NCBI GenBank assembly: GCA_002224055.1
Contig: AZLU01000030.1
Coordinates: 1 to 64,000 of the forward strand
DNA: 64,000 nucleotides
Direction: 5' to 3'
Source: Pezizomycotina sp. ARF18
Taxonomy: Eukaryota > Ascomycota
The position numbers and the translations under genes are program-made. The notes beneath the pieces are model-generated. The model had not been told where the DNA came from, searched no databases, and worked only from the letters and a program-made list of their open reading frames with translations. This document shows positions 37,337 to 64,000 of this stretch, one piece after another (the stretch's first letter is position 1; each line of letters starts with the position of its first letter).

Positions 37337-37344
37337 GATTGAGT

Positions 37345-40300
37345 GCGGAGTGTTTTTTTGTTAGGTATAGATTGGAATGGAGATATATGAAGTCAGAAGG
37401 TAGGGATTGTGTGTGGTTGTATGTGTGTGTGTATCAGGCGCTAAATGAATGCTTTATAAACGCCTCTTGTATGATGCTAGGAAAAAGGATCTGCTTTCGA
37501 CTGAGATGGTTTCCGGGAAGAAGAGGAGGGGCGGACGTTCTCTCCGCCTTTATATATTCCAATTCCATCAATTCTCCATCGACAAGACAGTTGAAGCTAT
37601 AGACAAGCTTCGCTTCCTCTGATCTCCAGTCTCAAAGAGCAACATGGTGCAGCGAAAAATTTTCTCAAAGTTTCTTCTAACCACCCTGTATCCAGGAACT
37701 CCAGAAGAGTAACTTTCTGTAGATGCTACCTATGACGCCGTCTTTGGCGGAGAACATTCCAGGAACGAAATGCAAAGTAAGGAAAATCCAAGGATCCGAA
37801 GGAGGTTATCGACGGTTTCCTGTTCAACTGGCTTTAACTGATTTCATTAAAGTTAACCCTGATTCACTTACAATCAGCTACAAAACGCAATGACAAAAGC
37901 AAAAAAAAAGGAACATGGAAAGGAAAATTTTTTCATCTTACTCATATGGACAGAAATGTTCCTCTACCTATGTCAATATGCTTGACATTGATTACCCGCT
38001 AAATGTTTGATAGTCGCCCATAATATATCGATTCAGCATCTGAGGTAGCAGCGACAAAAAAAAAAGCCTCGATACCTCCTCAGAAGGTTTTTTTCCTGCG
38101 ACTGTGGAGGTCATCCCACTTTTTTCGAACTCGTCCAGGGTTCCTATATGCAAAGCCTGTAGGTCTCGCAATCGCTAGACGTTATCAGGCAACATCCAAT
38201 ACACCGGATTGTGGTAACTGGTGGGGAAACAGCAGAAAAGTCGACGGATGTGGAGCTGGCTAGCCGGAAAGTTATGACATCACATGAGGGAAAAGTGCTC
38301 ATGGTTCGTCATATTTGGTCCGGTCTGTTTATTCCATTTGAGCATAAGGATGAAGCTATAAGAAGCTCAAGGTCCTGATAAGGCTACATCTATCGAGAGG
38401 AGAGCTTAAAAATTTCCCCCTTATCTTTCTCGAAGGACCTGGTGTTTCAAACAATATCTTTTGTCAATTGGTCTGCAGTAACGGTTTTGCTGGAGAAATC
38501 TCAGAATGTGAAGAACTTTTTTTTTTTTCGCTTGGAATAATTTGTTGGCAGGGTCCGGAATATCCCGAGGCACACAAGGAAAAATAAATATTGGAAAAAG
38601 TGACGTACCACCGGCCATGGATGGGCAAAACCCAAACCCACCACCCGAAAAAAAAAAGGAAGAAAAAAAAATACTGGCACAGACTTTTTTACCCAGAGGT
38701 TAGAGAATAACTCCGCTGAGTATATTCCCTGCCGAAACCCAGCCCGGTTTGTAGGAGGGCCGAGGATCCCGAAGGAGGATAGATAGGACGACACGGACGA
38801 CCGATATTTCCGTACTTGGTTATCTCGCTAGATTTGGATAGGAAGTATAAGCTGGATTAGTTGATTAGTTACGAAAATCAGCGTTAATTATTGACAAGGC
38901 CAGATCAAACCTTGACTTGCTAGATCTCTGAAAAGATAAAAGACGCACCGGAAAAAGAGCCAAAAGAGCCTCAGAAAAATTGCGAATCTGCGGATGCTTC
39001 ATGCATGATCGGCGGAGCGGGAAAGGCTGAGCTAAGGGGCTCGTCCACCCTAAAGGGCTACGATGATGGAATATTCTCACATGGGTTCCTGCCAGGGAAA
39101 ATCGAAGCAGAAGTTCTCCATGGGAATTGAAACCTCTTCCTTGCCTTCTCCCTTTTGTTCAAGGCAAAAGAACACGAGGAGAAACGTGCGTGGAATAGCT
39201 GACAAAGATTCGCACGCCGGGAAAAGATAACTTTTGGCTATATTCCTGAGAAGCCTTGATTGCCAATCCCCTCGTATTCTGTGTGTGTTGTCTCCTTGCT
39301 TTTTCCGGATATCAGCAACGCCTTTTTCCTCCCTTATCTCTGCAGGAATAAAACGCGAAAATTAGCAGGAAGGGAAGGGAAGTCTTTTCTTCCGAGGAGA
39401 TATTGTCGATAGCTGTCAGGCTATTAAAAAAAATTATGTTTTTTTAAGCCCCGTGTTTTTTTTTTTTTTTTTGAAGACTACTTAAGTCCTTTAGGAAATC
39501 GTAATTTTAATTTTTTTTTATTTAAAAAATAATTAAAAATAAAGAATTTATATTTTATTTAAAAAGATTAAACGATATTTATTTAGACAAAAACAAAATA
39601 ACTTGTTTACTGATTAATAAAGAAAAATATTAGCCTTATTTAATAAAAGATTTATAATTGAATAAATAGATAATATCTATAGGTAAAAAGTTAGTATTAT
39701 TTAATAAAAAATTTTTAATCTCATTACCTAATAATACTTTATAATAAGTAAAAAGATTGCGATTGTTGATGTCAAGATGTATGTAGGTGCTAGCCATTGG
39801 AGTATAAGTAAGGGATGTGGTGAGCTACCCCGCTTTGGGGAACCACCGGCATATATACAATATATACTATAGTAATGCTAGTGTCTAGATATGCTACAGG
39901 TCTGCGTACACGGGGGGCCTTAACCTCCATGCAACTACAACGAAAGCAGCAAGTCTATATTCCATATTCCATACCCCGACAAAGATTAATATTAAATATA
40001 AAATTATACTGTCCAACACACCTCTTTTGTAAATGCTAGTCGATATTCGAACTTCCCTCATTTATTCCGTAAATCTACTTAGGTAATAAAAGTTGAAGCC
40101 TTTTTTTTTTTTTTTTTGTTCTACGAAGCTTAGCTGCGGTGCTTAGTGAGAAAGCTGGGCTGGATGTATACACGGAATCGTTATTGATTTTGCAGAGAGA
40201 TTGCTTGTTTATTATTTGGTGGTTGTTGGTTGGTAATAACTAAAAGTAATAACGGTCTAAACCAATATAAAAACGTTTAAAACTCATCTCCCCTTTATTT

Positions 40301-43001: not shown

Positions 43002-46000
43002 ATATATTGTGAGAATGGTTTGAAATAGGATATAAAGGGATTTTTTTAGGTTGTAAGAGCTTGATCACGGCCTCGTGTCCGTACTGAGCTGCCCAGGACA
43101 GCGGTGTTCGGCCGCACGAATCTTTAGAGTCTGCGTCGACGCCCGCATCGAGGAGGAGCTTAACCACGGCCTCGTGTCCGCTCCGGGCTACCAGGACAGC
43201 GGTGTTCGGCCGGACGAATCTTTAGAGTCCGCGTCGACGCCCGCATCGAGGAGAAGCTTAACCACGGCCTCGTGTCCGCTCCGGGCTACCCAGGACAGCG
43301 GTGTTCGGCCGGACGAATCTTTAGAGTCCGCGTCGACGCCCGCATCGAGGAGGAGCTTAACCGCGGCCTCGTGTCCGTTCCCGGCTGCCCAGAACAGCGG
43401 TGTTCGGCCGGACGAATCTTTAGAGTCCGCGTCGACGCCCGTGCTGAGGAGGAGCTTAACCGCGGCCTCGTGTCCGTTCCCGGCTGCCCAGAACAGCGGT
43501 GTTCGGCCGGACGAATCTTTAGAGTCCGCGTCGACGCCCGCATCGAGGAGGAGCTTAACTGCGGCCTCGTGTCCGCTATCGGCTGCCCAGAACAGCGGTG
43601 TTTGGCCGTTCGAATCTTTAGAGTCTGCGTCGACGCCCGCATCGAGGAGGAGCTTAACCGCGGCCTCGTGTCCGTTCCGGCTGCCCAGGACAGCGGTGTT
43701 CGGCCGTACTTATTCTTAGAGTCCGCGTCGACGCCCGCATCGAGGAGGAGCTTAACTGCGGCCTCGTGTCCGTTCCCGGCTGCCCAGGACAGCGGTGTTC
43801 GGCCGTACGAATCTTTAGAGTCTGCGTCGACGCCCGCATCGAGGAGGAGCTTAACCGCGGCCTCGTGTCCGTTCCCGGCTGCCCAGGACAGCGGTGTTCG
43901 GCCGTTCGAATCTTTAGAGTCCGCGTCGACGCCCGCATCGAGGAGGAGCTTAACTGCGGCCTCGTGTCCGTTCCCGGCTGCCCAGGACAGCGGTGTTCGG
44001 CCGTACGAATCTTTAGAGTCCGCGTCGACGCCCGCATCGAGGAGGAGCTTAACTGCGGCCTCGTGTCCGCTATCGGCTGCCCAGGACAGCGGTGATTGGC
44101 CGTTCGAATCTTTAGAGTCCGCGTCGACGCCCGCATTGAGGAGGAGCTTGATCACGGCCTCGTGTCCGTTTAGGACCGCCCAGGATAGCGGTGTTCGGCC
44201 GAACGGATCTTTAGAGTCCGCGTCGACGCCCGCATCGAGGAGGAGCTTGACCGCGCCTCGTGTCCGCTATCGGCTGCCCAGGACAGCGGTGTTCGGCTGC
44301 ACGAATCTTTAGAGTCCGCGTCGACGCCGCATCGAGGAGGAGCTTGACCACGGCCTCGTGTCCGTTCAGGACTGCCCAGGACAGTATATTTCGGTCCTTT
44401 CGGGAAGTAATGTCACGCGAATTTTTAAGAATGGTTCCAATTGCTTCCTGAAACTCCGAAACCGCAGAACAGGAATAATCATTAGGAAATCTGAGGTTAC
44501 CCGGCAGTAGAAGTGCCTTTATAGCATCTTCATTTGCATGAGCTATTGCGCTATTCAACGGAAAGCCGTAGCGTTCCCCGAGATACATATATGTGGAAGG
44601 CGTCTGCGTTCAACCTGGATCAAATTTGGTAAGTTGTGTTCGGCGAGAATATATAAGAGACTTGCACTGGCATAGTACCGCCGTATCTGAAATTTTTCAA
44701 TAAGATTATTTAGTTTGATCCAATTCCCTAGCGGGAAATTTCGGACAAAAGTTTCTTGCGTGATCCCGTAGCCTTCTGCTTTATCTGCATGATATAGCAC
44801 ATTCTGAATCGCGTATTTTAGGAAAGGGAACCTCTCGGATGCAAGTTTGCGGAGACTCGCGCCTCATTGGTATTTGCGGCCGGTAGTGGTTCAGTACCGA
44901 GCGGCAAGGATTTTGAAATATCGATCTCTATGTAGTTTTGACAACACTGTTTCAACTGGGCGTGACCAACGCCCGGAAAATTGTCGTTAAGATCTGACCG
45001 AAGCTTGTGAAGTCCTTTCCCCCCGCGCAGGTAATCCGCTACTGACTCGTGGATGAACTGAACGACTTGGTTCTTGGATTTGGTCATCTCCGCGAGCCCT
45101 TTCGAAGAGCTTAGGATAAACATCTTCATGTAGCCCTCGTTGACCCCTTCCCGATCCCATTCGGACAAAGCCTCTGGGTCACATCCGGATATAATAGCAA
45201 AATACAACTCTTCACACTTCAATGGTCGTTTCGCGTATAATATCCACTGAAGACAAAGTACCAACTCGCCCATGTTCTGACCGTCCCTTGTTAAAATATC
45301 TTCGAATAGCTTGTCTAACCCATTTGGTATCTCATCGAGCCGCTTTCGAAGCACGTGTATGCGACCATGATCGATCTCTTTGTTAAGTATCGCCACTACG
45401 AGGACGACCACAGGAAGATCCCGGAAGCCCTTTGGAGGATATTTTCTTTGATTTCATTGATTAGCTTACTAGGCTTTGCTTTTAGCGCGCTGTGCAAGTA
45501 GTCAGCCATATCCTGGTAGTGACCTTCTTGGCCTTCCAGGACCAGCTGGATCCCCTTGTCGAAGGTGATATTTGGGTAGTGGCGGCTGGAGAAGCAGACG
45601 TGTAATTGACACCGCGAGATAGCTCCTTGTCCTAGATGTTCAAAAAAGGCCACCATTTGTCGCACTTGGTCCTCATCGCATTCATCAAGAGCGTCGATAA
45701 AGCATATTAGGTTGCGTCCGCTGAGCCTCTCGACCGCATGGCCCAAAAGCTCCTTTAGCGTCTCGATGTTCCACGTATAATAATCGTCGTTTCTCATAGG
45801 CGTGAATGTATCGAATAGAGACTGGAGCTCCGGCACCTTCTGTAAAAGTTGAAATAACAATGACCGATACATCCCAAATGTCGACTTTTCCAGTATCTCT
45901 CCTCTCGCGTTAAAGAAGAAAAAGATAGTAATACTATCGGTCTTTCTCTTCTTTGTTTCCTTAAGGGCGAACTTCATAATGGTCGACTTTCCTGTCGCAG

Positions 46001-47330
46001 GCTTGCCTTTGATCCACAGGAAACCGTAATGCTCTGGGAGCTTGCTAACATCTAGCCAGTTTTGATACTCGGGTTTGTGTAGAAGCCACCTACATGTCTT
46101 CGCATGGGCGTTCTTGATAGTGGCGTGGTGGGCATCGATTTGGTCGAACCTCAAGGAATCTAGGAAATGTTGCCTTTCGTCATCGCCGAGGACCCGGGTT
46201 GCAATCGGCGTGGCAATGAGCGGTCCTGGTTTAGGGATAGCTGCTATAATCCGGTTCAACGCGTTGGTGACTTTCCCAAACTCGACATCGTCCGCTCTGC
46301 TGAACCGACACATTTCCATATGATTTCGGGCGATGTGCTGAGTAACCTCTATGTCACGGTCATTCAGACATGAAGCCGTATCTTCTACAACCTACTCGCA
46401 TGTAAATAGTTAGCATATACATATATATATTTTTCCAGCGTTCAAATTCCCCTTTTACCTTCTTGTTATTGAGAAGTTTCACTCCATATTGCTCCTGAAA
46501 AGAATGAATAACCCATCCGCGCCTGCGGGCAATGGGGCCAAACTCGTCGCGCAGCTGCTTGAGCAACTGCGACTCGGGCAACAGCGAACTCATCACTTGT
46601 TCATTGATTGAATACCCGACGGACTCGATGACCTTTCCCACAACACGGTGAGCGAAACTCCTCGGGTCAGCACCACCATGTGGCGTCCCGAAGAATATGA
46701 TACCAATTGTGCCTTCGTACACGCTGTGAAGTTGACTCTGTTCCCCAACGAAGCCATGAGATTGCCGAAGCGCTTCTTTCACAACAATGCCCCCGAGGCT
46801 GTGTGCGATAAACACTAGCGGCCTCGATGGTTCGGAGCGACGCGTAGCTTCCAATTCGACCAGGAAATTCCGCGCGATATCGAAAACCGTGCTCTGGTTT
46901 ACCGGGCGGCCAAGCATGTGGCGGACGTGCGTGTCATATCCATACGTGAGAACGCGTGCGTCCGGCGTGATGTCCGGCAGGAGGTCCTGCGGCCAGTACG
47001 TGCCGTTCCAGACGCCTCTTCTCTCCTTGCGTGACATAAGGATAAGGATTGGGAGGTTCTGGAAAACTTGTTCGGGCGCTCGCCGAATGCATCGTCGCCA
47101 TTCGAACTCTCGTTTTCGCAAGCCCATGTGTCTCTTGGGTCGCCGGTGAAGCCGTGGATGAGACGATGCTACTCCCTTATTAGCCGTGGAGCAATATATC
47201 GGGGATTGCACGACCATGACTCGACTTACTCTAGAGTTGGTTTCTCTGGGTTTACAAGGACTGAAAGGCCATCGGGATGAGGCACAGCCGGTACATATAC
47301 CTGTGTGGCCCGCTCGTTCGCGCCTTGCAT
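43002..47330 (-). CDS. NLR: SesB-like hydrolase, NACHT, 14 ankyrin repeats
   Basis: STAND receptor of the fungal NLR type. The best start is 47,330 (MQGANERATQVYVPAVPHPD), running to GLSVLVNPEKPTL before an intron with donor GTAAGTCG. The hydrolase domain follows: IHGFTGDPRDTWACE, WPQDLLPDITPDARVLTYGY and nucleophile elbow FIAHSLGGIVVKEAL (about 46,780), then IGIIFFGTPHGGADPRSF. After a second intron (about 46,395-46,460) come NHMEMCRFSRADDVEFGKV and NACHT: Walker A IKGKPATGKSTIMKFAL (about 45,995), Walker B NLICFIDALDECDED (about 45,690), RASGIFLW. A winged-helix-like region with QVVQFIHESVADYLRGG (about 45,045) leads to ankyrin repeats from about 44,400 to the end. The 307-codon NACHT frame at 45,396-46,319 is unbroken; elsewhere there are about eight single frame changes. 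The last codons read YGHEAVIKLLQPKKIPLYPI and stop at 43,002. Family role (known): hydrolase as effector, NACHT as switch, repeats as sensor. Confidence 0.92.
43055..44400 (-). repeat. 14 near-identical 99-bp ankyrin units
   Basis: Tandem 99-bp units encoding the 33-residue ankyrin unit with consensus TPLSWAAGNGHEAAVKLLL followed by DAGVDADSKDS. Units differ at only a few codons (for example the residue after DSKDS and the loop GNG/DSG/QYG). Some copies are one base short in a C or G run (about 43,190, 43,676, 44,252 and 44,324). Such high internal identity means recent or ongoing unit exchange. Confidence 0.95.
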
Positions 47331-47334
47331 AACG

Positions 47335-48460
47335 AATAGCTGAAAGAAATGGTCGGCTTCACTAATTCTCAGGTTGTAAATGATGATATATCGTGGCACA
47401 ACGCACCATTCAGAAGATGCTGGTGTTTGTGATCATTTACGTATATCTCCGTGGATAGAAAATGAGAGTTGAGGTTTACGATGATAGAGATAAATCCTGG
47501 AAGAAAATGAACAATTGTAAACCCACGATTATCACAGCCTCGTCCGTGAATCCGCCTCGCCGATTGAAAGGCTCCACGTGTCTGCAGCTCAACTCTTTTC
47601 TTGGCAGCGGGTGACATTAATTGAAGGGAAAAAAAAAAAAAAAAGAGTCTTTTCCATTTATTTAAGTAAGTATGGAGATTGTTGGAACTGGGTTCTCTTA
47701 TTTCCAGTCTTCGTGCTGTTACTCGGATCCTTTTCTCTTTTTCTGGTTCTTTAGGTTTCGTGTTTCCTTTTCTCTTAGTCCTTGTCACTACCTGTTTTTG
47801 CCAATAGGTGTATAGAAAGAGAAATTCTGTCTCTTTTCTCTTCCTTATACTCCTTCCTCTCTTCCTCTACTCTTTTCTTTACTTATATCAGAATAATAAA
47901 TAAAATCAATTAATTACTTATATAAAGCATTCCCCTTTGTAATAATATTGCCTTTGACTGTTTTTTTCTTCTTCAAGGCAAAATTGGAACTTTTAGGCTT
48001 GACAAAGATATCTAATGGCGAGGAACGAGCAATGCTATTAGGTCTCCGGCTGCGTATGTTCTTTTAGCTGGTGTTTTTTAAGTGGGCAGCCATTTGCCTA
48101 TTGCGATTTGTGCTATAAAAAATAGGCCAAAGTACCTTCTCTTATATTTTACCAGAGTGTACATCACCAAGAAAAGAAAGCGCCAAGGCGTTACCGCGCC
48201 TGGCTACAGTAGCGGAATCTGCGCTATAAATATGTATATGTATATTTTTTTTATAGCTTGGTCGCACAGGAGCGGAACGACGGGCGGAAATCGCGGAAAA
48301 GGCTCCTGTACTCTCGATCCTCTACAAGAGCTTCAGCATTAAACGTCCGCCAAACCGAACGTGTAAACCATCTTCGCCACTCTACAGTACATCGCGATTT
48401 GCGAATTAGACGCCGCCCCCCCCCTTCACTCCCTCCTGCTCACACTATCAACCGCCGATA
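47335..48460. other. Intergenic, no gene seen
   Basis: The upstream regions of the minus-strand NLR and of the plus-strand NAT gene, back to back. The minus frame at 47,369-47,788 is Lys/Arg- and Phe-rich with no motif. A C run lies at about 48,417-48,427, just before the NAT start. Confidence 0.45.
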
Positions 48461-48465
48461 TCGCA

Positions 48466-49523
48466 ATGGAGATCGACTCCCTAGACCCCATCCACCAACC
48501 ACCAACCTACACGCCCTCGCAGCTCCTCTCCGCCCTGCGCCGCATATCCTTCCCCACACCTCTCTACACAACCACAACCGACCCCACAACATCCCTCGAA
48601 CTCCTCGACATCCACTCCATACCCCCTACCCTACAAACACTAACAAACCTAATCCAACATGCTCAATCTTCTATACCCTTCGAGAACCTCTCCCTGCACT
48701 ACTCCGCCGAAAGCACGTCTCGCTCGACGCGACCGACCTCTTCGGTAAAATAGTAAACGACGGCGGGGTGGGTATTGCATGGAAAACAACCACTTCTTCG
48801 GAACTGTTTTGCGTAGTCTGGGTATACTGTAATGAGTGCCGGCGGAAGGGTTAGCGGCGCTATTTCGGGTGCGGAGACGTATACCGGTTTAACGCACATG
48901 GTTAATATAGTCACTGTGGAAAACCAGCGGTATTTAGTCGATATAGGATTCGGCAACGACGAAGCTGTGGGACCGTTGCCGTTGGTAGATGGGTTTGTTG
49001 GGGTTGGTATAGGTCCCAGACGGCAGAAGTTGGAGTATAAAGCGCTGGCGCAGCACACGGATAAAGCCAGAGGTCTGGGTGTACTCCTTCGAAGACGTCA
49101 ACGATACTAGTAGCGAAGAAGGGGGAAGGAACACGCGAAGTGGATACCAGCGTACTCGTTCGTCGATTTTGAATTTTTCCCGGCAGATTACGAGATTATG
49201 AATTACGGGACTAGTACGAAGAAGACTAGTTTCTTTACGTATAATGTTATGTGTACGGTTATGTTACTTGGGGAAGGGGAGGAGGATGTTTCGAAACCTA
49301 GGGGGCTGGTAGGGTATATTGTGCTGTTTGGGGATAGGGTTAAGAAAAGGATCGGTGGGAAGGTTGAGGTTATTGAGGAGTTGAATAGTGAGGAGGAGAG
49401 AGTGGCGGCGCTGGAGAAGTATTTTGGGATTGTGTTGAGCGAGAGGGAGAGGAAAGGTATTAGGGGACGATGACGCAGATAAGGACGAAACCTGGGGAGA
49501 TGAGGACGCCGTCGAGGAGGTAG
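48466..49523 (+). CDS. Arylamine N-acetyltransferase family
   Basis: The NAT family transfers acetyl (or, in some fungi, malonyl) from CoA to arylamines; Fusarium homologues detoxify plant benzoxazolinone products. It starts at 48,466 with MEIDSLDPIHQPPTYTPSQL. SSIPFENLSLHY (about 48,670) is the family signature and is followed in another frame by KHVSLDATDLFGKIVNDG. The catalytic Cys appears in YCMENNHFFGTVLRSLG (about 48,775), the catalytic His in LTHMVNIVTVENQRYL (about 48,893) and the catalytic Asp in VDIGFGNDEAVGPLPL (about 48,940). The C-terminal half includes YSFVDFEFFPADYEIMNYGT (about 49,155) and LEKYFGIVLSERE; the likely stop is at 49,523. The length of about 350 codons fits. The triad is complete although the frame changes about five times. 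It stands alone, with no obvious operon-like partner. Confidence 0.87.
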
Positions 49524-50702: not shown

Positions 50703-52557
50703 ATGAAGCGACTCTTTTGTAGTGTCCTTTTGATATTGGGCCTTCTCACCCTTGGCTTGGCCTCTACGGAGAAAAAGGATCCCGACATCCAGATCAAATA
50801 CCATGGACCTGTTCAGAAGGGGAGAACCGAATGTTACAATTAGAGGAACCGTGCACGTAAGTTCTAAACATCATTTTCCACTCTCTTTAGAGCTAGCCTA
50901 GGAACTCATGACTAAACTTATATATGTGTTAATAGGAAGTTTGGGCCGAACTCTTGAAAAAGAACTCAAACTACAAGACGGACTTTCCAATCCACACTGT
51001 AGATATATATAACCTGGAGAATAGCCGACGGCTGGACCGTCGCGTCGCCAGAGGTGGCAATCATGGAAAGGATGATGGAAATGGCGATGGAATAAATCTG
51101 AGGGCAACCAAAACCAACATGGCGGTGGAGATGGAGGCCAAAGCGGTAATAGCGGAGGACAGCAAGATCACGATGGTGGTGGCTCAACCCAAGACCATAC
51201 CGGCGGTAACGACGGTGGGCAAGGCACCGGCAATACAAGTCAAAGTTCCGACGGCGGAAGTGGCGGTGAACCACTTTCCACGGAAACTCCAACTGGTTCG
51301 GTTGGTTCCGGTGAATCCGAAGAACAGTCAGTTACGGCCGTTCCAACAGAGACAAAGGAATTGCAGCCGACCGATACATCGGAAGCAACTTCAACCGAGC
51401 CGTCAGACGAATCAGAGACGACGGCAACCGCAACGTTGTCTATGGCCACAACTGTTGAAATTCCTCCAGAGACTGTCTCCGATATAGAGACTGAAGCGCC
51501 TAGGTTAACCGACTCTGAGGTGCATAAGAAGTCCAAACACGCGCATGCGACTGCGACCTTGAGTTCTCACGTCCATAGAAACGCGTCGATGACGGCGACG
51601 TCAGCAACGATGGGAAATAATACTTGGAGCCTATCCACTCCTAGACCAACATGGGCCGTTGAACTTGATGTACGTATATACGGCTTCGCTCCGAATCCAT
51701 CGATATAACTCGTGGAAAATTCGCCTACAATCTCTTGTCTAGCGGCAGCCTTCTATCGCTCTTTATTTCAGAGTCCCTTGCTAACATGAGGAAATTATGT
51801 TACACAACTGGGTATTTCGTGTGGCGATAATACAACGTCGCCCGATCTCGTAGGGTTCAATCTTAAGCTTTCACAGCTTCAGTATGCCGTCAAGGACGCC
51901 ATACACCCGCAGATCTACCCATTTTTAAAGCTGGGAGGTTACAGCTCCGGATGTTTTCTCAAGATTAATCCGCCGGCTGAGGGCAGACCCAACGGGACAG
52001 AGTACTGGGGGTGGCCGTTCAATTGCCACCAGGTCAGTCGCTTCGAAAATTCCGCGATTAACCTCTGCAGCTTTTCCGAAACGGTTTTTGTAAGGAATTG
52101 CGACGAAATAGGTGGGTTCATAAGGCACCAATAACTTCATCCACTCATCTCACTCACATTTTACTAACTTCTTTACCTTTACTTAGGGAGAATGGCGCTG
52201 GCTATGTACAATAACCAAACCTGCGAAGGCGCGCAGCAGGTAAACTTCATGGAGCCGTCGTACGCTAACGATCTGAAGGACTACAGAGGTGCTCGCACGG
52301 GTATCAGGGGCTCCTACGTTAACAAGGCGTTCAAGTTTTGGGTGCAGATCGACTGGGTCCACGACTGCAGTACTAATTTCATAAACTCTGTCATCGCTAC
52401 GTGGACTGTTAGTGATGTGATGACGGCTTCTGCACCGCCGCTGGCTTCTACGCCCTCAGTTAGCTCACTGGCTTTTGCACTGGCAGCTTCTACACCGGTG
52501 GCTTCTGTGCCGGTAGTTTCTGTGCCAGTACCGATACCGTCACTACAGTTACCATGA
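50703..52557 (+). CDS. Secreted family copy A (four exons, mucin-like linker)
   Basis: Unknown function; first of four tandem paralogues. Exon 1 (50,703-50,856) has a clear signal peptide, MKRLFCSVLLILGLLTLGLA, then IQIKYHGPVQKG. Intron GTAAGT..TAG at 50,857-50,935. Exon 2 (50,936-51,669) begins EVWAELLKKNSNYKTDFP and continues, uniquely among the copies, as a Gly/Gln/Asn/Asp-rich tract and then a long Thr/Ser/Glu-rich, probably O-glycosylated linker. Exon 3 (about 51,791-52,111) reads ISCGDNTTSPDLVGF, LQYAVKDAIHPQIYPFL, with cysteines in SSGCFLKINPP, PFNCHQ and VRNCDEIG. Exon 4 (52,187-52,557) reads RMALAMYNNQTCEGAQQV, GIRGSYVNKAFKFWVQID and ends with a Pro/Ser/Val/Ala-rich tail. About two frame changes overall. 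Likely extracellular or wall-associated; an effector or mating/recognition role is inference only. Confidence 0.75.
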
Positions 52558-52559
52558 AA

Positions 52560-53440
52560 GCTTCTTCACCTTGTAAAATATTTCGGAGAATCAAGTTACG
52601 GCCATATTTTCTTTGCAGGGTTGATTTTTCCTTTCCCATAACGCTTTAGCCACCGTTTACTGGATAAACAAATAAAAAATTTTTTTTTTTCTCTTGTAAT
52701 TACATATCCACCAGAACTGGTTTTCGATACCGCCTGTCTAGCATTCTCCCCCTATAAAAAGCCTTTTTCGATTTACGTGTCTGTCCGTGATTATACTTAC
52801 CTGCAATTATTGACGTGCCAAATATGCATTTGTCTCAGCAGGTTTGGTTTGGGTGATCAAATTCTAATATTATTGCTTTTTGTATACATGTAATCCTGCG
52901 ACGGCGAGCAGTAACTCACAATAACATTGAGGCAATGAAAGTGCCGACGGCAGCAGGATAAAAGTAACATCGTGAACATCTTGATAGTAGTCCACCCCCG
53001 TCACAGCTCGGGATTGTTTCTAGCTAGGTTCTAGCGGAGATCCTAGGTCAAGAGGGCCTGGAGACATACTACGAAGGATTTCTGAGATGTCCTTTACGAA
53101 TATCCTTCGAAACTCGATCTTGATACCACGTATAGAGATCAGTGCTTTAATTCACTAGTCCTCGGCATATAAAGCAATGACCGGTTGCAATTACAATGAA
53201 ATCTCCGATATCGAATCAAGCAAAGTGAAAATCATTCAATACGCTACTTTAATATACAAAACTTCGTATAGTTCCGAGTTCCTTGAGCAAATTATTTAGA
53301 AGCATGCCCAATACCGCCACTGCTGCATTTTGATATCAGTTATCACGATTGCGATCGCTGATACTGTTCCTCCCAATAAAGCCACTACAGTCGCGACTCG
53401 TCGCTTATGAGGGCCAGAAGCCTCAGTTTCAATGCTAGCA
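52560..53440. other. Intergenic between copies A and B
   Basis: No separate gene. The hydrophobic minus frame at 53,296-53,526 is the antisense of copy B exon 1 and is not supported as coding. Confidence 0.45.
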
Positions 53441-53449
53441 AACAACAAA

Positions 53450-54378
53450 CAAAGGCCAAGCACGCTCAAATCACCTAATACGGCATTGTGAAAAGAGGGG
53501 AAAGCAATGTTACTTTGACGGAACAATCTATGTATAGTCTACTTCTTTACCTTATTGCTTAGGGCGTGATTTAATAGTGGAAGTTCTGGCCTAATTGTCC
53601 CTCTTACAGGAAGTGCGGCAGGAGATACTAAAGCGAAACCCTAATTACGAAAGCGACTTCCCGGTGGATGGTGTTCTAGCACCAATGGTGGCCCTTACGA
53701 CTCGTTCCTATAGCTGGTCAAGTATCACGGAGGACGCAAGAGCCCTCGTGTCCCCAGACCTAGGACTTATCTCACTCCATCCTTTTCTTTTCTTTTCTTT
53801 TTTTTTTTGGCACTGCCATTTGGGCAGTGCTTAATACTTAAGCATTAAAATGCTAATATCTAGTAATAAATAGACAATAGAGTGTGGTTACGCCTCCGAG
53901 AAGGGAACCCACTGGTTGGGCTGTCAAAGACGCGATCTACTGGAAAATATATCCCCTATTAGCAGTGAAATGGGCAGAAAACTGCACTGCCGATGTTTAG
54001 CTCTGGCCAGAGTCCGGAAAAACTCAGTGTACACCAATTTCTTGCCTCGAAAATTCTGGGATTAATTTTTGTCTTACGGATGGCATTGGTGTGACGTCTG
54101 TTGCACGGAATTGTGAAGAACTAGGTTCGTAACCAATAATCTCCGCGTCCTCGGAGCTGGAGAAGCACGGAACTGGAATTTTTCGGCTTGTTAAATCGGT
54201 TACGATGCTAACCAGAAATCCGGGTCAAATGGCGCCGACAATATTCGATCGGCCGGATTGTTCAACGATGGCTAACTTTAGCGATCCGGGGTGTCGTGTG
54301 ACTTCTGCCCAGCAGAGAGGAACTACCCAAGGTATTAAAGGGAGGTATTATAATAAGGGATTTCAACTTTTATGTTGA
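53450..54378 (+). CDS. Secreted family copy B (most degraded)
   Basis: Aligns exon by exon with its neighbours. Exon 1 keeps only its end, reading YGIVKRGESNVTL before a donor at 53,532; no convincing signal peptide or start is left, so the 5' limit is a guess. Exon 2 (from 53,610, after CTCTTACAG) reads EVRQEILKRNPNYESDFP and VDGVLAPMVALTT. The next intron carries a T run and a perfect 8-bp hairpin. Exon 3 (53,874-54,124) reads TIECGYASEKGTHW, WAVKDAIYWKIYPLLAVKW, cysteines in AENCTADV, and VARNCEELG. Exon 4 (54,216-54,378) reads QMAPTIFDRPDCSTMANF and QGIKGRYYNKGFQLLC. About three breaks. It has lost a recognisable secretion signal and is probably a relic. Confidence 0.58.
53810..53830 (+). 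other. Perfect hairpin in copy B intron
   Basis: GCACTGCC, loop of five, GGCAGTGC: an 8-bp perfect stem directly after a pyrimidine/T-rich run inside the intron between exons 2 and 3 of copy B. A second short stem (AGCATT..AATGCT) follows at about 53,841-53,854. Confidence 0.6.
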
Positions 54379-54384
54379 GATAGG

Positions 54385-55210
54385 CTGGGAGCGCGTTTGC
54401 AACGGGGCCGATCGGCTTCGTGGATCGTCCGCAAATTATTGAACCCCAATAACCGAAGGGTAATTATTATTGACGAGTATACGATAGGGGGATGGTGAAG
54501 ATAATTCAAGTCGCGACATTTGTACCTTCCGGCATTTACTTGTTATGTAATTCGATACCCGTTTGGAAATTGAAATAGCCTATCTATGTTCAGAGAAAGA
54601 AAAAGAGGAGACAGGAACGAGTGATTTCTCCCTTGAAAGAAAGCGCAAATATTTCACTTCAGTAGATCAGAGTTTCAATTCTCTCATTTTTTTTTTCTCT
54701 CCCCTTTCTTACCTTTCTTTGATATTTTTCGTCCTCAATCAAAAGAGCAAGGCCAGTCTTGGAACATTTTCAGGCTATTCTCATTCTTATTTCGAGCAAC
54801 TTGGATTATCTTAGCAATTTGGGGCAAACAATGTAGACCCAACCTGAGCGAAAACCACGGTGATTTGAAATCCTTCAATTGACCAAGCACCATGGTATCG
54901 CGATATCCATTTGTTCCATTCTGGGGCAGGGTAATCACAGCAGCATGTCCATCCTGATATTACTTAAATATATTTACATATATCTATATATTTGGACAGG
55001 ACCCTATCTTCATATCTTCTCTGCGCCTGCTTGCTCTATAGACATCACATTCTTATCAGATTCATTACCACCATTAAGCTTTTGATTCCCGAAAATTTGA
55101 TAATCGTCCTGGAGGCATTTTACATCTTGGGACTTTCATTTGTATCACCAAACAATTCCAATCAGAACACAATAACCAAAATTAAAATATAATAAGTCCC
55201 CTGCCAGTTT
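54385..55210. other. Intergenic between copies B and C
   Basis: No supportable gene; short frames only. It presumably contains the promoter of copy C. No defined element was recognised. Confidence 0.45.
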
Positions 55211-55216
55211 AAAATC

Positions 55217-56391
55217 ATGAAATTGCTGCTCTGTAGCGCCCTCATTATCTTCAGTGCTGTAGCGACATACGCTAGCACGCTCCCTAAAGTACGCCGAGAT
55301 GGAGGCAGCGGGTCGCAAGTCCAGATTAGATACCACGGCCCGGTGAAGAAAGGCGAAGAAAATGCTACTATCACCGGAGGGCTTCATATGAGTCAACGCT
55401 GTTGAACCAACCTAGTCTATTTCCCGTCTTTATCTTCGTGCTCCTGTTGCACACGGGCTAGGCCTGCTAGCGGTTGAAATTATTGAGGTAGCGCAGACTA
55501 CGAAACCGACTTTCCCACTCCAGGAGTAGCGAGGTCGTGGAGGAAACCCGCAAGAAATTGCGGCATCGGCGTGCAAATAAATACAATTGGGGTTTTTCGT
55601 GACCACAACCTGGTCCAAGTACGGGTAAAGGTGTAATTCCCAGTTATTTAGCAGAGATATATCTTAACTTGAATAGGCCGAACACAGCTTCGACGATAAA
55701 CATTGTTCTTTTCTTTCTTTTTTTTTTAAAAAAAAAAAAAAAAAACAAAAAAAAAACCGCTCTCTTACGTTATTTTAGAGATTATCGAAGTCCTGCAGTC
55801 GAACTATACCATTCTTGGTATTTAAACTAACTTTTATCGATTTATTTAGAGCTACTCTTGCGGAGAAAGTATAGCCCAGGCCATAAAGCCTACTATGGCG
55901 TGAGAGACGTTGTGTCGGCTTTAGTTTACCCACTGCTCAAATGGGGTGCCGATCAGTGCACTGTCACGTTAAATCAGCGTGGTGGTTCCGCTATTCAGTC
56001 CATCGCATGCTTGGTGAACACGAACATCCTTTTCAGTATCAAAGACGATTCGCATTCTGAGCTTACCAGAAACTGTCAGGAGCTAGGTATGATTGATTAG
56101 TCTTCCAGTATGCTCTCCTACCTAATTAGCTAAACAAGTACTGACTGGGAGTTGTGAACTCAGGTACCATGGCGCTCTTCCTGTACGACCATGAGAAAGA
56201 TTGCTCTTCTCCCTACCCCATAGACTTCGGTGATAGCCAATATTATAAATCCGATTACGCTTCTTTAGTCGAGGTAAGACGACGGGTATCAAGGGGCTTA
56301 CCATAATTACGACTGGGACTTCTTTCTAGCAATTGGTGGAATGATTCTTGTTAAAGTAACTGGGTTTGTGAAAGGGGGTTTCTGTTCTTGA
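55217..56391 (+). CDS. Secreted family copy C
   Basis: Unknown function. Starts at 55,217 with signal peptide MKLLLCSALIIFSAVATYAS, then VQIRYHGPVKKGEENATITG (exon 1, to about 55,390). Exon 2 (about 55,471-55,618) is the weakest match, reading DYETDFPTPGVA. The intron 55,619-55,849 (GTACGG..TTTAG) carries a T10-A18 junction. Exon 3 (55,850-56,086) reads SYSCGESIAQAIKP, YYGVRDVVSALVYPLLKWG, cysteines in ADQCTVTLNQR and IACLVN, and TRNCQELG. Intron 56,087-56,163. Exon 4 (56,164-56,391) reads GTMALFLYDHEKDCSSPY and GYQGAYHNYDWDFFLAIGG, matching the final motif of copy A. About three breaks. The core is compact (about 240 residues), without the mucin-like linker of copy A. Confidence 0.7.
55718..55745. 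repeat. T10-A18 junction in copy C intron
   Basis: Homopolymer palindrome inside the exon 2-exon 3 intron of copy C. The matching intron of copy D holds a longer T19-A17 junction. Confidence 0.85.
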
Positions 56392-56399
56392 TAGTGGTT

Positions 56400-57251
56400 T
56401 ATACTTAAAAATTGAATCAAACAATTGCAAACGCTATCGATGGAACCGTCGCCAAATGAGTCGCTCTGCGTAGCCAGCTTGGATTGCCAAGAAAGAGGGG
56501 GGGTGTCGTGTTTCTTCCACCTTTAATTTCACTCTTAATTTAAGGGCGATCGATTCACTAGGTATAATGATAAATTCGCACATAGGATTGTATCGATGCT
56601 TATTCAAGCAAAAACATCTTTGCCCTGATTATTGATTCTGTGACCTCACCTCTTTCAGATTTTAGTCTCGAAAGCTCTTCGTTTAGCCCTTTATGATGGT
56701 AGTAACTTCATGGATTCCCTTTTAATTTATAGATCAGTAGCTTAAATGGCTTGTTGCCCGGATATTTCCCTACGCCCCGAAAAAGATATCTACAAGATAG
56801 AAGAAAAAAGAAAGAAATAAGTAGCGTCCGCTAGGTCTTGTCTGGTGGAATTTGAATTTCCAGAGTATTAAAGTCCTAGAACGTAACACTTAAGTCTCAA
56901 TTAACAGGCTATCTTTCCTTTATAGCGAAAGAAACCTTTAATGTGACATATAATGATTAGTATTTGGGGATAATTAGTAATATTTGGGGATAATTAACAT
57001 GATTAAGTTAATAATAATACTTTTATCATTGAATACTTAGCTAGCTAAATACAGTCGCTATAATAACTACCACCATGCCTACAGCGGACTGCCGTCATCG
57101 TCGTTAACTTTTCATCGACTGTCGATGTCGCCTTTGCTATTATTAGCTAATATTACTCCCGCCGTTGTTGGCTGCTAGCTTGCTATTGTAGCTGCTACTA
57201 TCTTGCTCTAATTAGTAGGCGTTTATCGCCTTAAATAAAATTATCTATATA

Positions 57252-57282
<31 letters not shown>

Positions 57283-58160
57283 GTGTATGTATGTATATAT
57301 TTGCTAGCAGTTCTCAAAAAGAATAGGATAGACAATGTAAACCTCATAGAGAACGTTCTAGTTGAAGAATATTTGAATCCTTGTTTTATTGTGAGCATAT
57401 ACAGCTTCATCTTCCTTTTTCTTCTTTCTCATTTCTCTGCTTGAAGTTTCTGCAAGGTTTTTCTTTCATCTTCCAAAATAATGTGCATTAGCGCAGCGTC
57501 AAAGTTAGGAAGGATTGACGTGCACTGGCTCGAGTTCTTTGAAAACAAGTTGGTGTTAAATGCCTTTTGCGGCGGGTATCTGGGTTAGAATTATTCCAGC
57601 AACAAACAGTTACCCGTCGTTTATTGCTCCAATCCTTATCGTCGCGATCATCGAAAATAAAGGCTGGGAAAGGTACTTGAAGTTAAACTTGAAATATTGA
57701 AATACCTGCGCTAAGTGTAAAGGGCTTTTAGCTACTGTGATTTTTTAAGTCCTTTCGTTAAACATGTATCGTGATATCGCGATATCGGATCGCGCGATAT
57801 CAGTTCGCTCTATTCTCTGAAAATGATACTCGGAGTAATTCCGCTGCGCCCCTACTACAAAATATATGCAGAAGTCGACATTAACTCAAGCCTTAATTTG
57901 ATTGCTCACTCTGAAGTTAATGATATGTTCTTATCGAGATACCGGGGCCCTAATAATGAAAACTATGAATGATATATCTTGTGATATCTATCAAGTAGAA
58001 GCCCAGATGTTCCAGCTGTCTAGGTATAAAAGAAGCGAAGATCCTGTCCCTGTCTCTTCTGCAAGTAACATATATCGCTTAAGTCTGCTTCAAAGATTCG
58101 CATCCACAAATTCAATACCTAAACATCCATCTTCACCAAAAATAAACACTTCACCACTTT
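56400..58160. other. Intergenic between copies C and D; microsatellite
   Basis: No gene seen. It holds a compound (TA)n(TGTA)n microsatellite at 57,245-57,300 and a palindrome GATATCGCGATATC at 57,773-57,786 followed by a second CGCGATATC. Confidence 0.5.
57245..57300 (+). repeat. (TA)n(TGTA)n microsatellite
   Basis: TA repeats followed by about ten TGTA/TATG tetramers, then TATATAT. Non-coding, despite a short frame with repeated Met-Tyr-Val-Cys. Confidence 0.85.
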
Positions 58161-58169
58161 ATATACACC

Positions 58170-58673
58170 ATGGGAAATTTCTTTATAATATTCTCCTAGT
58201 TCTTTTCACCACCGTAATCCCTCTCTCCCGGCTCTGGGATGGATGCTCTCTCGACGGTCGCGATATTGGCCTTGAAAGCGCTACCGTGATGTATAACGGT
58301 CCTGTGGTCCCCGGAGAGGGCCATGTTAAGCTTCACGGCCCGCTTCAGGTATGTTTTTCACCGTTAAATCAAGTGGCTTTCTCAGTTTCAGAAAATAGCA
58401 CAATGATGTAACTACCTCCTTACCAATACCACGGCCTAAATAGGATGTCTGGAATGAGATAAAGAAAAGAAATCCGCAATATGAGGCCGACTTTGCTCCC
58501 AACTCAACCTTTTCACAACCAACAAATTCGAGGGAGGTTCGCCGTCGCTCTGGTCTCCACAAGCGAAATACAGCCATTGGAGCTGGGATGCCCTGACGGC
58601 CAACTCCCCGCGCCACCAAATAAGGACAAGGGCGACGTAAGTTCTCTTTCCTTCTGTTTCCGTCCTGTTAGTG

Positions 58674-58709
<36 letters not shown>

Positions 58710-59359
58710 TAAGCGATTTGCTAATCTCTTTGTTTCGTGAAATATCTAGTATATAAAATGCGGGGAAGAAATTGCAGGTGGACCTGGTAGCGATTGGGAA
58801 TACGGTTTCCGTGAAGCGATATATGGTCTCTTTCACATGAGCCAACGAGATGATATCGACTGTCATGTTTCTGTGGATCCGAAAAAACACGGTCGGTGCA
58901 ATCGCGTCTCTTGCGTATCATCCACCGAAATTTCGGTATGCAATCAAGGCAACTCGATCATCAAAGTAGGCTGCGGTGAAGTCGGTACGTCTCAGCGAAC
59001 CCCCCCACCCCACCACCCCTTTCTCTTTCATCTAGGTATTTATGGCTTCTCTCTATCTTTTTGTTCTTTTATCCGCCGGAGCCAACAAGGAGCTAGCCCC
59101 CGCTAGAGCCATCGTTAATAATTTATGTAACCTCATTTCCTGCGGCTTCGAAAAATAAACAGCGCAAATGGTTTTGGGCATATTAGCGGAAGACCGGTGT
59201 TCAAATACCGAAGATAAATGTCTCGCGAATCTCGGCACTAAGCCATCAGATTGCAGCTATCCGGGACCAAAAAAAGGTCAGGGCGTTATAGGAGAGTTCT
59301 ATAAGCCGCGATCCAAATCTTTCAGCTTTAGGGTCGGAGTCTGGTTTAGCATGTGTTGA
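58170..59359 (+). CDS. Secreted family copy D
   Basis: Unknown function; the clearest exon structure of the array. Exon 1 (58,170-58,348): ATG, then in the long frame GKFLYNILLVLFTTVIPLS, a hydrophobic signal segment, and VMYNGPVVPGEGHVKLHG. Intron 58,349-58,443. Exon 2 (58,444-58,636): DVWNEIKKRNPQYEADF, then a basic region. The intron 58,637-58,749 (GTAAGT..CTAG) holds the T19-A17 junction. Exon 3 (58,750-58,984): YIKCGEEIAGGPGSDWEYG, FREAIYGLF, then cysteine-rich DIDCHVSVDPKKHGRCNRVS and VGCGEVG. Intron 58,985-59,162. Exon 4 (59,163-59,359): QMVLGILAEDRCSNTEDKCL, SDCSYPGP, GVIGEFYKPRSKSFSFRVGV and a terminal Cys. About 260 residues and 12 or more cysteines, suggesting a disulphide-stabilised secreted protein. 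About two breaks. Confidence 0.75.
58674..58709. repeat. T19-A17 junction in copy D intron
   Basis: Nineteen T directly followed by 17 A inside the 113-bp exon 2-exon 3 intron, leaving about 40 bp between it and the acceptor. Confidence 0.9.
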
Positions 59360-61599: not shown

Positions 61600-64000
61600 G
61601 CTAAGGAACAAGGAACTTCAGCTAAAGATATTAAGATCTCAGCTATAGATGTTAAGGAGATTACGACGATAAGGCTCTACGAGCCGTCGAGGTAGACTAT
61701 ATATATTATATTAAGATTATAGTATTATTAGTTATTATATATAGTATCGTATATTCCTTAGTTAGTCTAGTTAGTTCTATAGTTAAATCTATAAGTTTAA
61801 TCCTATCCTATATTATTAAATATTATACTATATATCTACGCTAGTAGGTTATAAGCCGGTTAGTAATATATCTTAATAAACGTATAGACTTACTTCTTAA
61901 TCTCTTCTAAACGATATATCTTATAATATTTCTCTTACTAAAGTTTAACGAGGTAAAGTTAAAGGCTAATCTTATAAACTACCTCGATTAGAGTATATAT
62001 ATAACTACGTTTCTTAAATATAATAAAGTTTAGAATATTACTAGTAAACCGCTTAAGGCTATAGTAGCTAACGTAAAGCTAAGTACTAAAGATTAAAATA
62101 ATAACTTAAAGACGTATATTATTATTAAAGCTTACTATAAGGTAAAGACTTAATATACTTATCTATAATCTACTAATAGTAGCGTAAATAAGGTATAAAA
62201 TACCTTAAGTTTAGCGTATATCGCTATTACCGCTATTAGTAAGCCTTATATTAAAAATAATTAAGGTAAATTTAACTTAAGAATAAAGTTAATATTTAAA
62301 AATTTATATAGAAGTATCAAGATCTTATTAAATATATAATAAGATATTAGGCTCGATCTTAATAGAGAAGACTAAGGTAGAAATAATAAAGAAAATAGAG
62401 CTAGGTATAGGCTTAAAGAATAATATAGCTATAATAAAGGCTATTAATCTTATCTATAGTAACCTTAATAGCGACTAAAAGACGTTTATTATAAACTTTT
62501 AGTAGATAATAAATTTAATAGTAAAAAAACTAACCTTTAATATACTTAAAAAGATACTACTTATTAAAGAGGTAAAGCGTAAAATATAATATACTAAAGA
62601 CGTTAGCTTTAAGAATAATAAGACGCTATTTAGAAAGAATAGTTAAGGTAAAACCTAAAGAAACGATAAAAAAGGCTTATAAGTTTAAGGGTAAATACTA
62701 TTATTATAATAAGGTTAAATATAAGAGAGCTAACTATAGGAAACGTATAAAGAATAAAAAAATAGCGGTAATAATAGGGTATTAGATCTTATAGTATAAA
62801 TCTTAATATAAGATACCGGCTCTTAAAGAATAATCTAGTAATTCCTTAACTTAGGCGTATCTTTTTATATAATAATAATAAGAAAAGTATTTTTATCTAT
62901 AAACCTCTTTTAAAGCTATAGAATATTATAATTAATAATAAAAAAGTATTATAAGCTATCGATATTAGCTTAATATTTATAAGGCTTAATAGAGAGTATA
63001 GTAATAGTCTTATTAAATTTAAAATACGTTATACGTTCTAAAGATAAAGTATAGCCTATTCTTAATCTCTCGCGTAAATAAAATAGAATATATAATAACG
63101 ATTTAATAAGATAAATATATAATAATTAGATTAGGACTAAGAATTAAAGCTATTATAAAAATAAAATTATAAAAAATTTTAGGTAAGATTATAATATTTA
63201 TAAAGAAAGTTTAGCTTTTACTACTATATAAAAAGTATATAAATAGCTTAAATATATCGGTAAGAATTATATTAAGTAAATAATTAAGTATAAAAATATT
63301 ATTAGTATTACTAAAAATAATAAATTTTAAAGCTATATTAATTATAAGGTCTATAAACTTACTAAATTAAAGGTAATATTAAACCGCGAAAAATCTTAAT
63401 TAGATAAATATAAGCTAATAAAATAATTTTTTTAAATTTTTATTAATAGGCGTATATAAAGAGCCTTAAAGATTATATAGAATTATTACCTTTTTTAAAG
63501 AAAATAGTTAGAAGTTCTAGATCTACTTTATAAAAGATAAAAAGGTAGAAATAATATTCTTATACTTTAATAGTACTCTTAAGATAGCTAAACGTTAATT
63601 AAATCTTAAGCTTATTAAAATATAATATAATAAAAATAAAAATATATCTTAATCGATAGATACTATAATAAAATAAAGATTATAGTCTATATCTTAGTTA
63701 TATATATATCTTAATAAAATAGTATACCTAAGAAGCTTAATTAGATTTTTATCGATAGATTAAAGATAATATTAGCTATATTAAAATTATCGCTATAGCT
63801 ATAGATAGAGGCGGTAAATTATTATAATCTAATTTATAACTATACGTTATTAAGACCGCTTAAAATACTAAAGATAATAAATAAATATATATAAGAAAGA
63901 TAGAAAGATAGAACTTCTAATATTTTAAACTTTAGAATATTAGTAAACTATATTATATATATATCGATAGTAAACTTTAGAAAAAGCTAAATAATATTAT
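61600..64000 (+). mobile_element. RIP-saturated LTR retrotransposon fossil (probably Copia)
   Basis: An old element running off the right end of the window. The DNA is extremely AT-rich, and CA/TG dinucleotides become almost absent from about 61,690 onward while CG, GC and GG remain, as expected of RIP rather than simple AT drift. Traces of the family's plan can be seen in order: a likely LTR/leader zone (about 61,680-61,950), a gag-like part whose codon spacing near 62,695-62,760 fits a zinc knuckle, then a protease/integrase-like part. I favour Ty1/Copia, but Gypsy is not excluded. It is dead, with disruptive changes throughout, far too many to count; age is best judged as after insertion but long enough for full RIP (which can act in few generations). 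Confidence 0.72.

What the first reader, a model, noticed from the sequence alone, without database searches (positions are those of the whole stretch)
50703..59359. Tandem array of an unrecognised secreted four-exon protein family
Four head-to-tail copies share order, exon plan and motifs. Exon 1: signal peptide then YHGPVxKGE-like (IKYHGPVQKG, IRYHGPVKKG, MYNGPVVPGE, YGIVKRGE). Exon 2 start: EVWAELLKKNSNYKTDFP, EVRQEILKRNPNYESDFP, DVWNEIKKRNPQYEADF, DYETDFP. Exon 3: (I/Y)xCG(D/E/Y), then (V/F)(K/R)(D/E)AI-like and NC(D/Q/E)E(I/L)G. Exon 4: MAL-type start, a Cys, then G(I/Y/V)xGxY-like near the end. Sequence between these blocks is strongly diverged, as in host-interaction effectors or self/non-self factors. 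I know no family with this signature.
Basis: partly seen in the sequence, partly recalled or inferred. Interest (0 to 1): 0.9.

Follow-up and report, generated by a model that had tools for sequence, protein, structure and literature searches.

The report
Tandem array of diverged secreted proteins
In an unnamed fungus, four related genes in a row appear to encode small secreted, cysteine-rich proteins that matched no named family in the databases searched; they resemble proteins a fungus releases to act on other organisms or cells, but their function is untested and the genome assembly contains many small errors.

Summary
Window 50703-59359 carries four head-to-tail homologous genes (A-D) with one four-exon plan and shared motifs. 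Profiles from three copies recovered the left-out one in 13 of 16 exon tests (12 if a weak E=0.11 case is dropped). Of seven whole-genome protein searches, three linked two copies and none matched outside the array. No Pfam family passed its cut-off; PDB and protein-database searches found nothing, but how well these cover fungi was not tested.

As assembled, every copy has frame breaks or stops. Assembly error is the likelier cause: HSP70 genes of this genome break frame in 5 of 7 loci (about 1.9 per kb) and CCT chaperonin genes in 7 of 8 (about 1.0 per kb).

Best reading: a strongly diverged family of secreted precursors with signal peptide, conserved pro-region, a Kex2-like site in 3 of 4 copies (statistically weak) and a cysteine-rich mature domain. 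Copy A also has a Ser/Thr-rich stalk and a long tail. An effector-like or antagonistic role is inference, as is any link to the nearby NLR gene. A killer-toxin-like fold could not be tested (pLDDT 46 and 41). New family, known kind.

The parts
50703..50856 (+). Copy A exon 1: signal peptide and YHGPV..GE..VTI.G.VH block (frame changes inside as assembled)
   Evidence: leave-one-out E=0.0046; hit by C exon 1, E=0.06
50936..51669 (+). Copy A exon 2: EVWAELLKKNSNYKTDFP block, dibasic/LDRR site, then Ser/Thr/Gly-rich stalk in another frame
   Evidence: leave-one-out E=8e-6; hit by B exon 2, E=0.32
51772..52111 (+). Copy A exon 3 (start uncertain; open frame from 51790): cysteine-rich domain, first part
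   Evidence: leave-one-out E=8e-9
52187..52557 (+). Copy A exon 4: MAL start, GIRGSY...DC end of domain, then about 62-aa Ala/Pro/Val/Ser tail
   Evidence: leave-one-out E=3e-7
53303..53531 (+). Copy B exon 1 (start uncertain): hydrophobic stretch and GIVKRGESNVTLT block
   Evidence: leave-one-out E=0.022
53610..53759 (+). Copy B exon 2 (end uncertain): EVRQEILKRNPNYESDFP block and LTTR site
   Evidence: leave-one-out E=6e-9
53881..54124 (+). Copy B exon 3 (start uncertain; one in-frame TAG)
   Evidence: leave-one-out E=6e-5 and 2e-3; hit by C exon 3, E=3.8e-4 with one TAG inside
54225..54440 (+). Copy B exon 4 (limits approximate; one frame change)
   Evidence: leave-one-out E=5e-6
55217..55387 (+). 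Copy C exon 1: signal peptide and YHGPVKKGEENATITGGLH block; expected donor is not GT
   Evidence: leave-one-out E=1.7e-4
55487..55600 (+). Copy C exon 2 remnant: DYETDFP only (end uncertain)
   Evidence: leave-one-out E=0.11, not first among unrelated ORFs
55854..56086 (+). Copy C exon 3 (one frame change near its start)
   Evidence: leave-one-out E=3e-8
56164..56388 (+). Copy C exon 4 (end uncertain; frame changes; no terminal Cys seen)
   Evidence: not recovered by leave-one-out
58170..58348 (+). Copy D exon 1: hydrophobic stretch and MYNGPVVPGEGHVKLHGPLQ block (start codon in another frame)
   Evidence: not among the nine leave-one-out rows shown
58444..58636 (+). Copy D exon 2: DVWNEIKKRNPQYEADF block, RRR/LHKR site (one frame change)
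   Evidence: leave-one-out E=8e-7
58750..58984 (+). Copy D exon 3: cysteine-rich domain, first part
   Evidence: leave-one-out E=3e-3
59163..59359 (+). Copy D exon 4, ending at the terminal Cys
   Evidence: not recovered by leave-one-out (rank 156)
43057..47358 (-). Neighbour, not part of the array: alpha/beta-hydrolase-like, NACHT-type (NPHP3_N) and ankyrin-repeat gene of NLR type

Best explanation
Four diverged tandem paralogues encode secreted precursor proteins. Each has a signal peptide, a conserved pro-region (G-P/I-V-x-x-G-E-x-x-V-T-x-x-G, then E/D-V-x-x-E-I/L-x-K-x-N-P-x-Y-x-x-D-F), a linker that in three of four copies carries a Kex2-type site, and a cysteine-rich mature domain encoded by exons 3 and 4. 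Shown: homology, order, shared intron positions, hydrophobic N-termini, cysteine framework. Inferred: Kex2 removes the pro-region in the late Golgi; the disulfide-bonded domain is released; it acts outside the cell on a neighbour (host, partner or competing microbe). Copy A, with its stalk and tail, is probably held at the wall or surface while D is released (inference). The copies diverged by duplication and relaxed or diversifying evolution.
For: Leave-one-out profiles and cross-copy genome hits show homology. Hydrophobic N-terminal windows of mean 2.6-3.0 in four copies. Strict Kex2 motif within 30 residues of the DF(P) block in 3 of 4 copies: LDRR, LTTR, VRRR/LHKR. Conserved Cys positions and E(I/V/L)G. 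Copy A stalk 29% Ser+Thr over 198 residues. Kex2-processed pro-domain effectors are a described class (PMC8528282, passages; PMC10942635, passages), and tandem expansion after divergence is described for fungal effectors (PMC9816061, passages).
Against: The strict Kex2 motif occurs in 27% of random 30-residue stretches, and the looser motif in 44%, so 3 of 4 is weak (about 0.06 by hand). Copy C lacks it. B and D also have an (I/L)xKR inside the conserved block, so the cut could lie elsewhere. No relatives, expression, host or structure support an extracellular target. Both structure models were below usable confidence. The frame breaks could partly be real.
Confidence: 0.45

Rival explanations
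1. A decaying array: B and C, perhaps all four, are pseudogenes of an old secreted-protein family.
For: Every copy has frame breaks or stops as assembled. C has a truncated exon 2, a non-GT first donor and no terminal Cys seen; B lacks a clear start and has an in-frame TAG.
Against: Comparable breaks occur in HSP70 (5 of 7 loci, 20 in 10.5 kb of span) and CCT genes (7 of 8 loci, 12 in 12.0 kb), which a living fungus needs. A and D keep long open exons 3 and 4 though the copies are only about 24-27% identical there.
Confidence: 0.3
2. A member of an existing but unnamed, widespread fungal secreted-protein family that these tools could not reach.
For: I recall, from no call, uncharacterised secreted proteins of filamentous ascomycetes with a similar pro-region followed by a cysteine-rich domain. 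The databases used were not shown to hold many fungal proteins.
Against: No hit at E up to 1 for A or D and up to 10 for the three-copy profile (9, 1 and 148 candidates); no Pfam match above cut-off.
Confidence: 0.4
3. A killer-toxin-like (KP4/KP6-type alpha/beta sandwich) family used against other fungi.
For: Cys-rich secreted precursor with possible Kex2 site. In both low-confidence models a strand is followed by a helix and then strands. KP6-like effectors are described in PMC10942635 (passages).
Against: No Pfam match above cut-off and no PDB match at E up to 10. Models have mean pLDDT 45.8 and 40.8, too low to use.
Confidence: 0.15
4. Self/non-self or reproductive recognition factors linked to the neighbouring NLR gene.
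For: A hydrolase-NACHT-ankyrin gene lies about 3.3 kb upstream. In Neurospora, lineage-specific genes cluster with HET-domain genes (PMC10684091, abstract and outline).
Against: Proximity only; no second locus, allele or relative was compared. Secreted proteins are an unusual partner for a cytosolic NLR (own knowledge).
Confidence: 0.07

Closest known systems
Kex2-processed pro-domain (K2PP) effectors, e.g. SnTox3, ToxA, SIX1/4/6 (PMC8528282, passages)
   Same: Signal peptide, N-terminal pro-region, KR/RR/LxxR site in the first half (3 of 4 copies), cysteine-rich mature part
   Different: No sequence match to any PDB chain; processing unproven; here the pro-region is the better conserved part and the copies form one tandem array
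FOLD effectors of Fusarium oxysporum (PMC10942635, passages)
   Same: Pro-domain plus cysteine-rich mature protein with very low identity between members
   Different: FOLD proteins have two domains with an eight-stranded C-domain described for SIX6; here one domain of about 140-170 residues and no confident model
KP4/KP6-type killer proteins (name and fold recalled; KP6 passages in PMC10942635)
   Same: Small, secreted, disulfide-rich; possible strand-helix-strand order
   Different: No Pfam or PDB match; fold untested
Sequence-unrelated structurally similar effector clusters (PMC9816061, passages)
   Same: Tandem paralogues whose sequences have diverged almost beyond recognition
   Different: No structure here, and host unknown

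Membership tests
Any named Pfam family | Match above the curated cut-off | tested here: not met
   10 exon pieces and 3 joined exon 3-4 or exon-3 rows: only weak hits far below cut-off (CdhC E=0.071, PycTM 0.096, Imm31 3.9)
K2PP effectors | Secretory signal peptide | tested here: inconclusive
   Hydrophobic N-terminal stretch in four copies, start codon in frame only in A and C; no signal-peptide predictor available
K2PP effectors | KR, RR or LxxR site in the first half of the protein | tested here: inconclusive
   Present after the DF(P) block in A, B and D, absent in C; background 44% loose, 27% strict
K2PP effectors | Pro-domain removed from the secreted protein | not testable with these tools
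   Needs secretome data or an in vitro Kex2 digest
K2PP effectors | Acts as an effector on a host | not testable with these tools
   Species and host unknown
KP4/KP6-type killer proteins | Sequence match to the family | tested here: not met
   No Pfam match above cut-off; no PDB match at E up to 10. That Pfam and PDB hold KP4/KP6 entries is partly recalled
KP4/KP6-type killer proteins | Alpha/beta sandwich fold | tested here: inconclusive
   Exon-3 models of D and A at mean pLDDT 45.8 and 40.8; no fold search was run on them
FOLD effectors | Dual-domain fold with an N- and a C-domain | not tested
   No model of the whole mature protein could be made: a spliced sequence is not accepted by the structure tool

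The most novel reading that the evidence does not exclude
An unnamed, possibly lineage-restricted family of secreted, Kex2-matured toxin-like proteins forms a fast-diverging recognition or antagonism locus beside an NLR gene: one copy has become surface-tethered by a mucin-like stalk while the others are released, and the NLR monitors the family or its targets.
Probability: 0.06. Interest if true: 0.75.

Novelty: new member of a known kind. Interest (0 to 1): 0.4.

Why it matters
If the genes are expressed, this is an undescribed family of secreted fungal proteins whose pro-region is conserved while the mature domain diverges, a clean test case for how tandem arrays generate new extracellular functions. 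It also warns that frame breaks in error-rich assemblies hide such short multi-exon genes from gene finders: here essential chaperone genes are broken as well, so the family would probably be missed by automatic annotation.

Tried and rejected
Pseudogene reading from frame breaks alone: rejected as unsafe after the HSP70 and CCT controls. Their break counts are approximate: abutting or overlapping matches in different frames, span includes introns, and one HSP70 row on C3 overlaps another by 325 bases.

More copies nearby: profiles over the window and C30:64001-264000 gave no convincing extra copy. C30:264001-286541 was not read. Weak outside hits: L032:4598-4804 (E 0.028-0.27) and L028:664-804 (E 0.018-0.57) showed no neighbouring blocks by eye; L039:84-149 (E 0.09) was not looked at.

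Paralogues elsewhere in the genome: seven protein searches, no match outside the array (at E<=0.001; 13, 21, 28, 33, 61, 62 at E<=10). Sensitivity is limited: four of the seven did not even find another copy.

Database relatives: none (PDB 14, 15, 38; Pfam 9, 39). Literature: the string YHGPV occurs in one unrelated paper. Descriptive searches listed general effector papers; their listings showed no description of this family, which is not proof of absence in print.

Species: ITS/LSU was read, but no named rRNA collection was available; not identified.

Fold: two predictions below usable confidence, so no fold search was run.

Rfam on the window: no match. tRNA scan: none.
Full report
What is there. 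The window is C30:1-64000 of an unnamed 46.36-Mb, 408-contig genome. The spliceosomal-type gene structure, the rDNA read and the NACHT-ankyrin gene fit a filamentous ascomycete; this placement is my judgement, and the species was not identified. At 50703-59359 on the + strand lie four copies, A-D, each with four homologous blocks in the same order.

Is it more than chance? I built profiles from three copies per block and searched 11,157 six-frame ORFs from the window and the next 200 kb. The left-out copy came back in 13 of 16 tests, counting C exon 2 at E=0.11, which ranked behind an unrelated ORF; without it 12 of 16. The failures are D exon 1, C exon 4 and D exon 4. I chose the block limits by eye beforehand, which favours recovery somewhat. 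Independent of those limits, C exon 3 found B exon 3 as the only other match reported genome-wide (E=3.8e-4, 39% identity); C exon 1 found A exon 1 (E=0.06) and B exon 2 found A exon 2 (E=0.32). The four-fold order and the shared intron-3 phase add to this. Homology is secure for A, B and C; for D it rests on exons 2 and 3.

Anatomy. Exon 1 encodes a hydrophobic N-terminus (best 11-residue hydropathy 2.6-3.0 in the four copies) and a G(P/I)V..GE..VT block. Exon 2 begins with (E/D)V..E(I/L).K.NP.Y..DF. Within 30 residues follow LDRR (A), LTTR (B) or VRRR/LHKR (D); C has none. This motif is common by chance: 27% strict, 44% loose. Exons 3 and 4 encode a cysteine-rich domain, 24-27% identical between A and the other rows. 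Its landmarks are (I)xCG, a YxxxxA block, further cysteines, NC(D/E/Q)E(I/L)G in A, B and C (GCGEVG in D), M(A/V)L, a Cys, and G(I/V)xGxY near the end (A, B, D). Copy A differs: its exon 2 adds a 198-residue frame with 29% Ser+Thr and 23% Gly+Asn+Gln, and its exon 4 runs about 62 residues past the last cysteine; D stops at that cysteine.

Broken frames. All copies break frame or hit stops as assembled. Before calling them pseudogenes I checked essential genes. HSP70 matches switch frame without an intron 20 times over 10.5 kb of span, in 5 of 7 loci; CCT chaperonin matches 12 times over 12.0 kb, in 7 of 8 loci. A fungus without working HSP70 and CCT is not credible, so this assembly carries frequent indels, and breaks in the array are expected. 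Neighbouring genes look interrupted too: an arylamine N-acetyltransferase at 48.4-49.5 kb matches PF00797 in three in-order pieces separated by stops. Those three pieces lie in one frame, however, so introns could explain it; this is not a control. Real decay of C (truncated exon 2, no GT donor) and of B is still possible.

Relatives. No Pfam family passed its cut-off. No PDB chain matched at E up to 10. The large protein database gave 9, 1 and 148 candidates and no acceptable score; I did not test how many fungal proteins it holds. Seven protein searches of the own genome found nothing outside the array, but four of them failed to find another copy, so distant paralogues may exist. From memory only, I think similar pro-regions occur in uncharacterised secreted proteins of other ascomycetes; this lowers my estimate of novelty.

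Structure. AlphaFold models of exon 3 of D and of A, each with five aligned pieces, had mean pLDDT 45.8 and 40.8 and pTM 0.28. Both show strand-helix-strands, compatible with many folds. No fold search was run on them.

Mechanism. The most economical reading is a secreted precursor with a pro-region that helps folding or keeps the protein inactive, removed by a Kex2-like protease, releasing a disulfide-rich domain. The class of Kex2-processed pro-domain effectors is described in PMC8528282 (passages): sites KR, RR or LxxR in the first half, about 30% of 120 effectors examined. PMC10942635 (passages) describes dual-domain and KP6-like effectors; PMC9816061 (passages) describes tandem expansion after rapid divergence. 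Secretion is well supported by sequence; processing is weakly supported; the extracellular target is inference.

Setting. An NLR-type gene (hydrolase-like, NPHP3_N and ankyrin parts) lies about 3.3 kb upstream on the other strand. About 2.3 kb downstream begins a block of about 4.5 kb with 16-23% GC, TpA/ApT 1.29-1.67 and (CpA+TpG)/(ApC+GpT) of 0.00-0.03 (500-base bins 62001-66000): an extreme repeat-induced point mutation (RIP) pattern. The array shows no such bias (2-kb bins 50-60 kb: 1.04-1.15). In a genome with RIP, recent long duplications tend to be mutated, so the array is probably old or escaped it; this is inference. In Neurospora, lineage-specific genes cluster with HET-domain genes (PMC10684091, abstract and outline), a loose parallel to the NLR neighbour.

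Verdict. The interpretation goes no further than 'secreted, cysteine-rich, strongly diverged, unnamed here'. I rate it a new member of a known kind, interest 0.4.

Noticed in passing
window 61700-64000 and C30 to about 66200 (L021): About 4.5 kb of 16-23% GC with (CpA+TpG)/(ApC+GpT) near zero and TpA/ApT up to 1.67: saturated RIP signature, probably a dead repeat.
   Followed up: partly
window 43057-44384: Ankyrin-coding 99-bp tandem repeat, 13.5 copies at 91% match, in an NLR-type gene; shows no RIP bias (0.91 in the 42-44 kb bin) although it is a repeat in a genome with RIP.
   Followed up: partly
window 45399-47358 (-): NACHT-type (NPHP3_N, E=1e-32) and weak alpha/beta-hydrolase pieces of the same gene.
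   Followed up: partly
window 48367-49470 (+): Arylamine N-acetyltransferase (PF00797) in three in-order pieces separated by stops; only one piece passes the Pfam cut-off.
   Followed up: partly
window 36088-37433 (-): HAD-type hydrolase gene (PF13242, E=5e-8); by eye its frame also looks interrupted.
   Followed up: no
window 53783-53808, 55708-55758, 58674-58709: T-rich or T/A homopolymer tracts lie between the exon-2 and exon-3 blocks of copies B, C and D but not A.
   Followed up: no
G000 whole genome: HSP70 and CCT genes are widely frame-broken, so any automatic gene set from this assembly will be unreliable.
   Followed up: yes
window 34599-35174 (+): A second ankyrin-repeat ORF (Ank_2, E=8.5e-36).
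   Followed up: no
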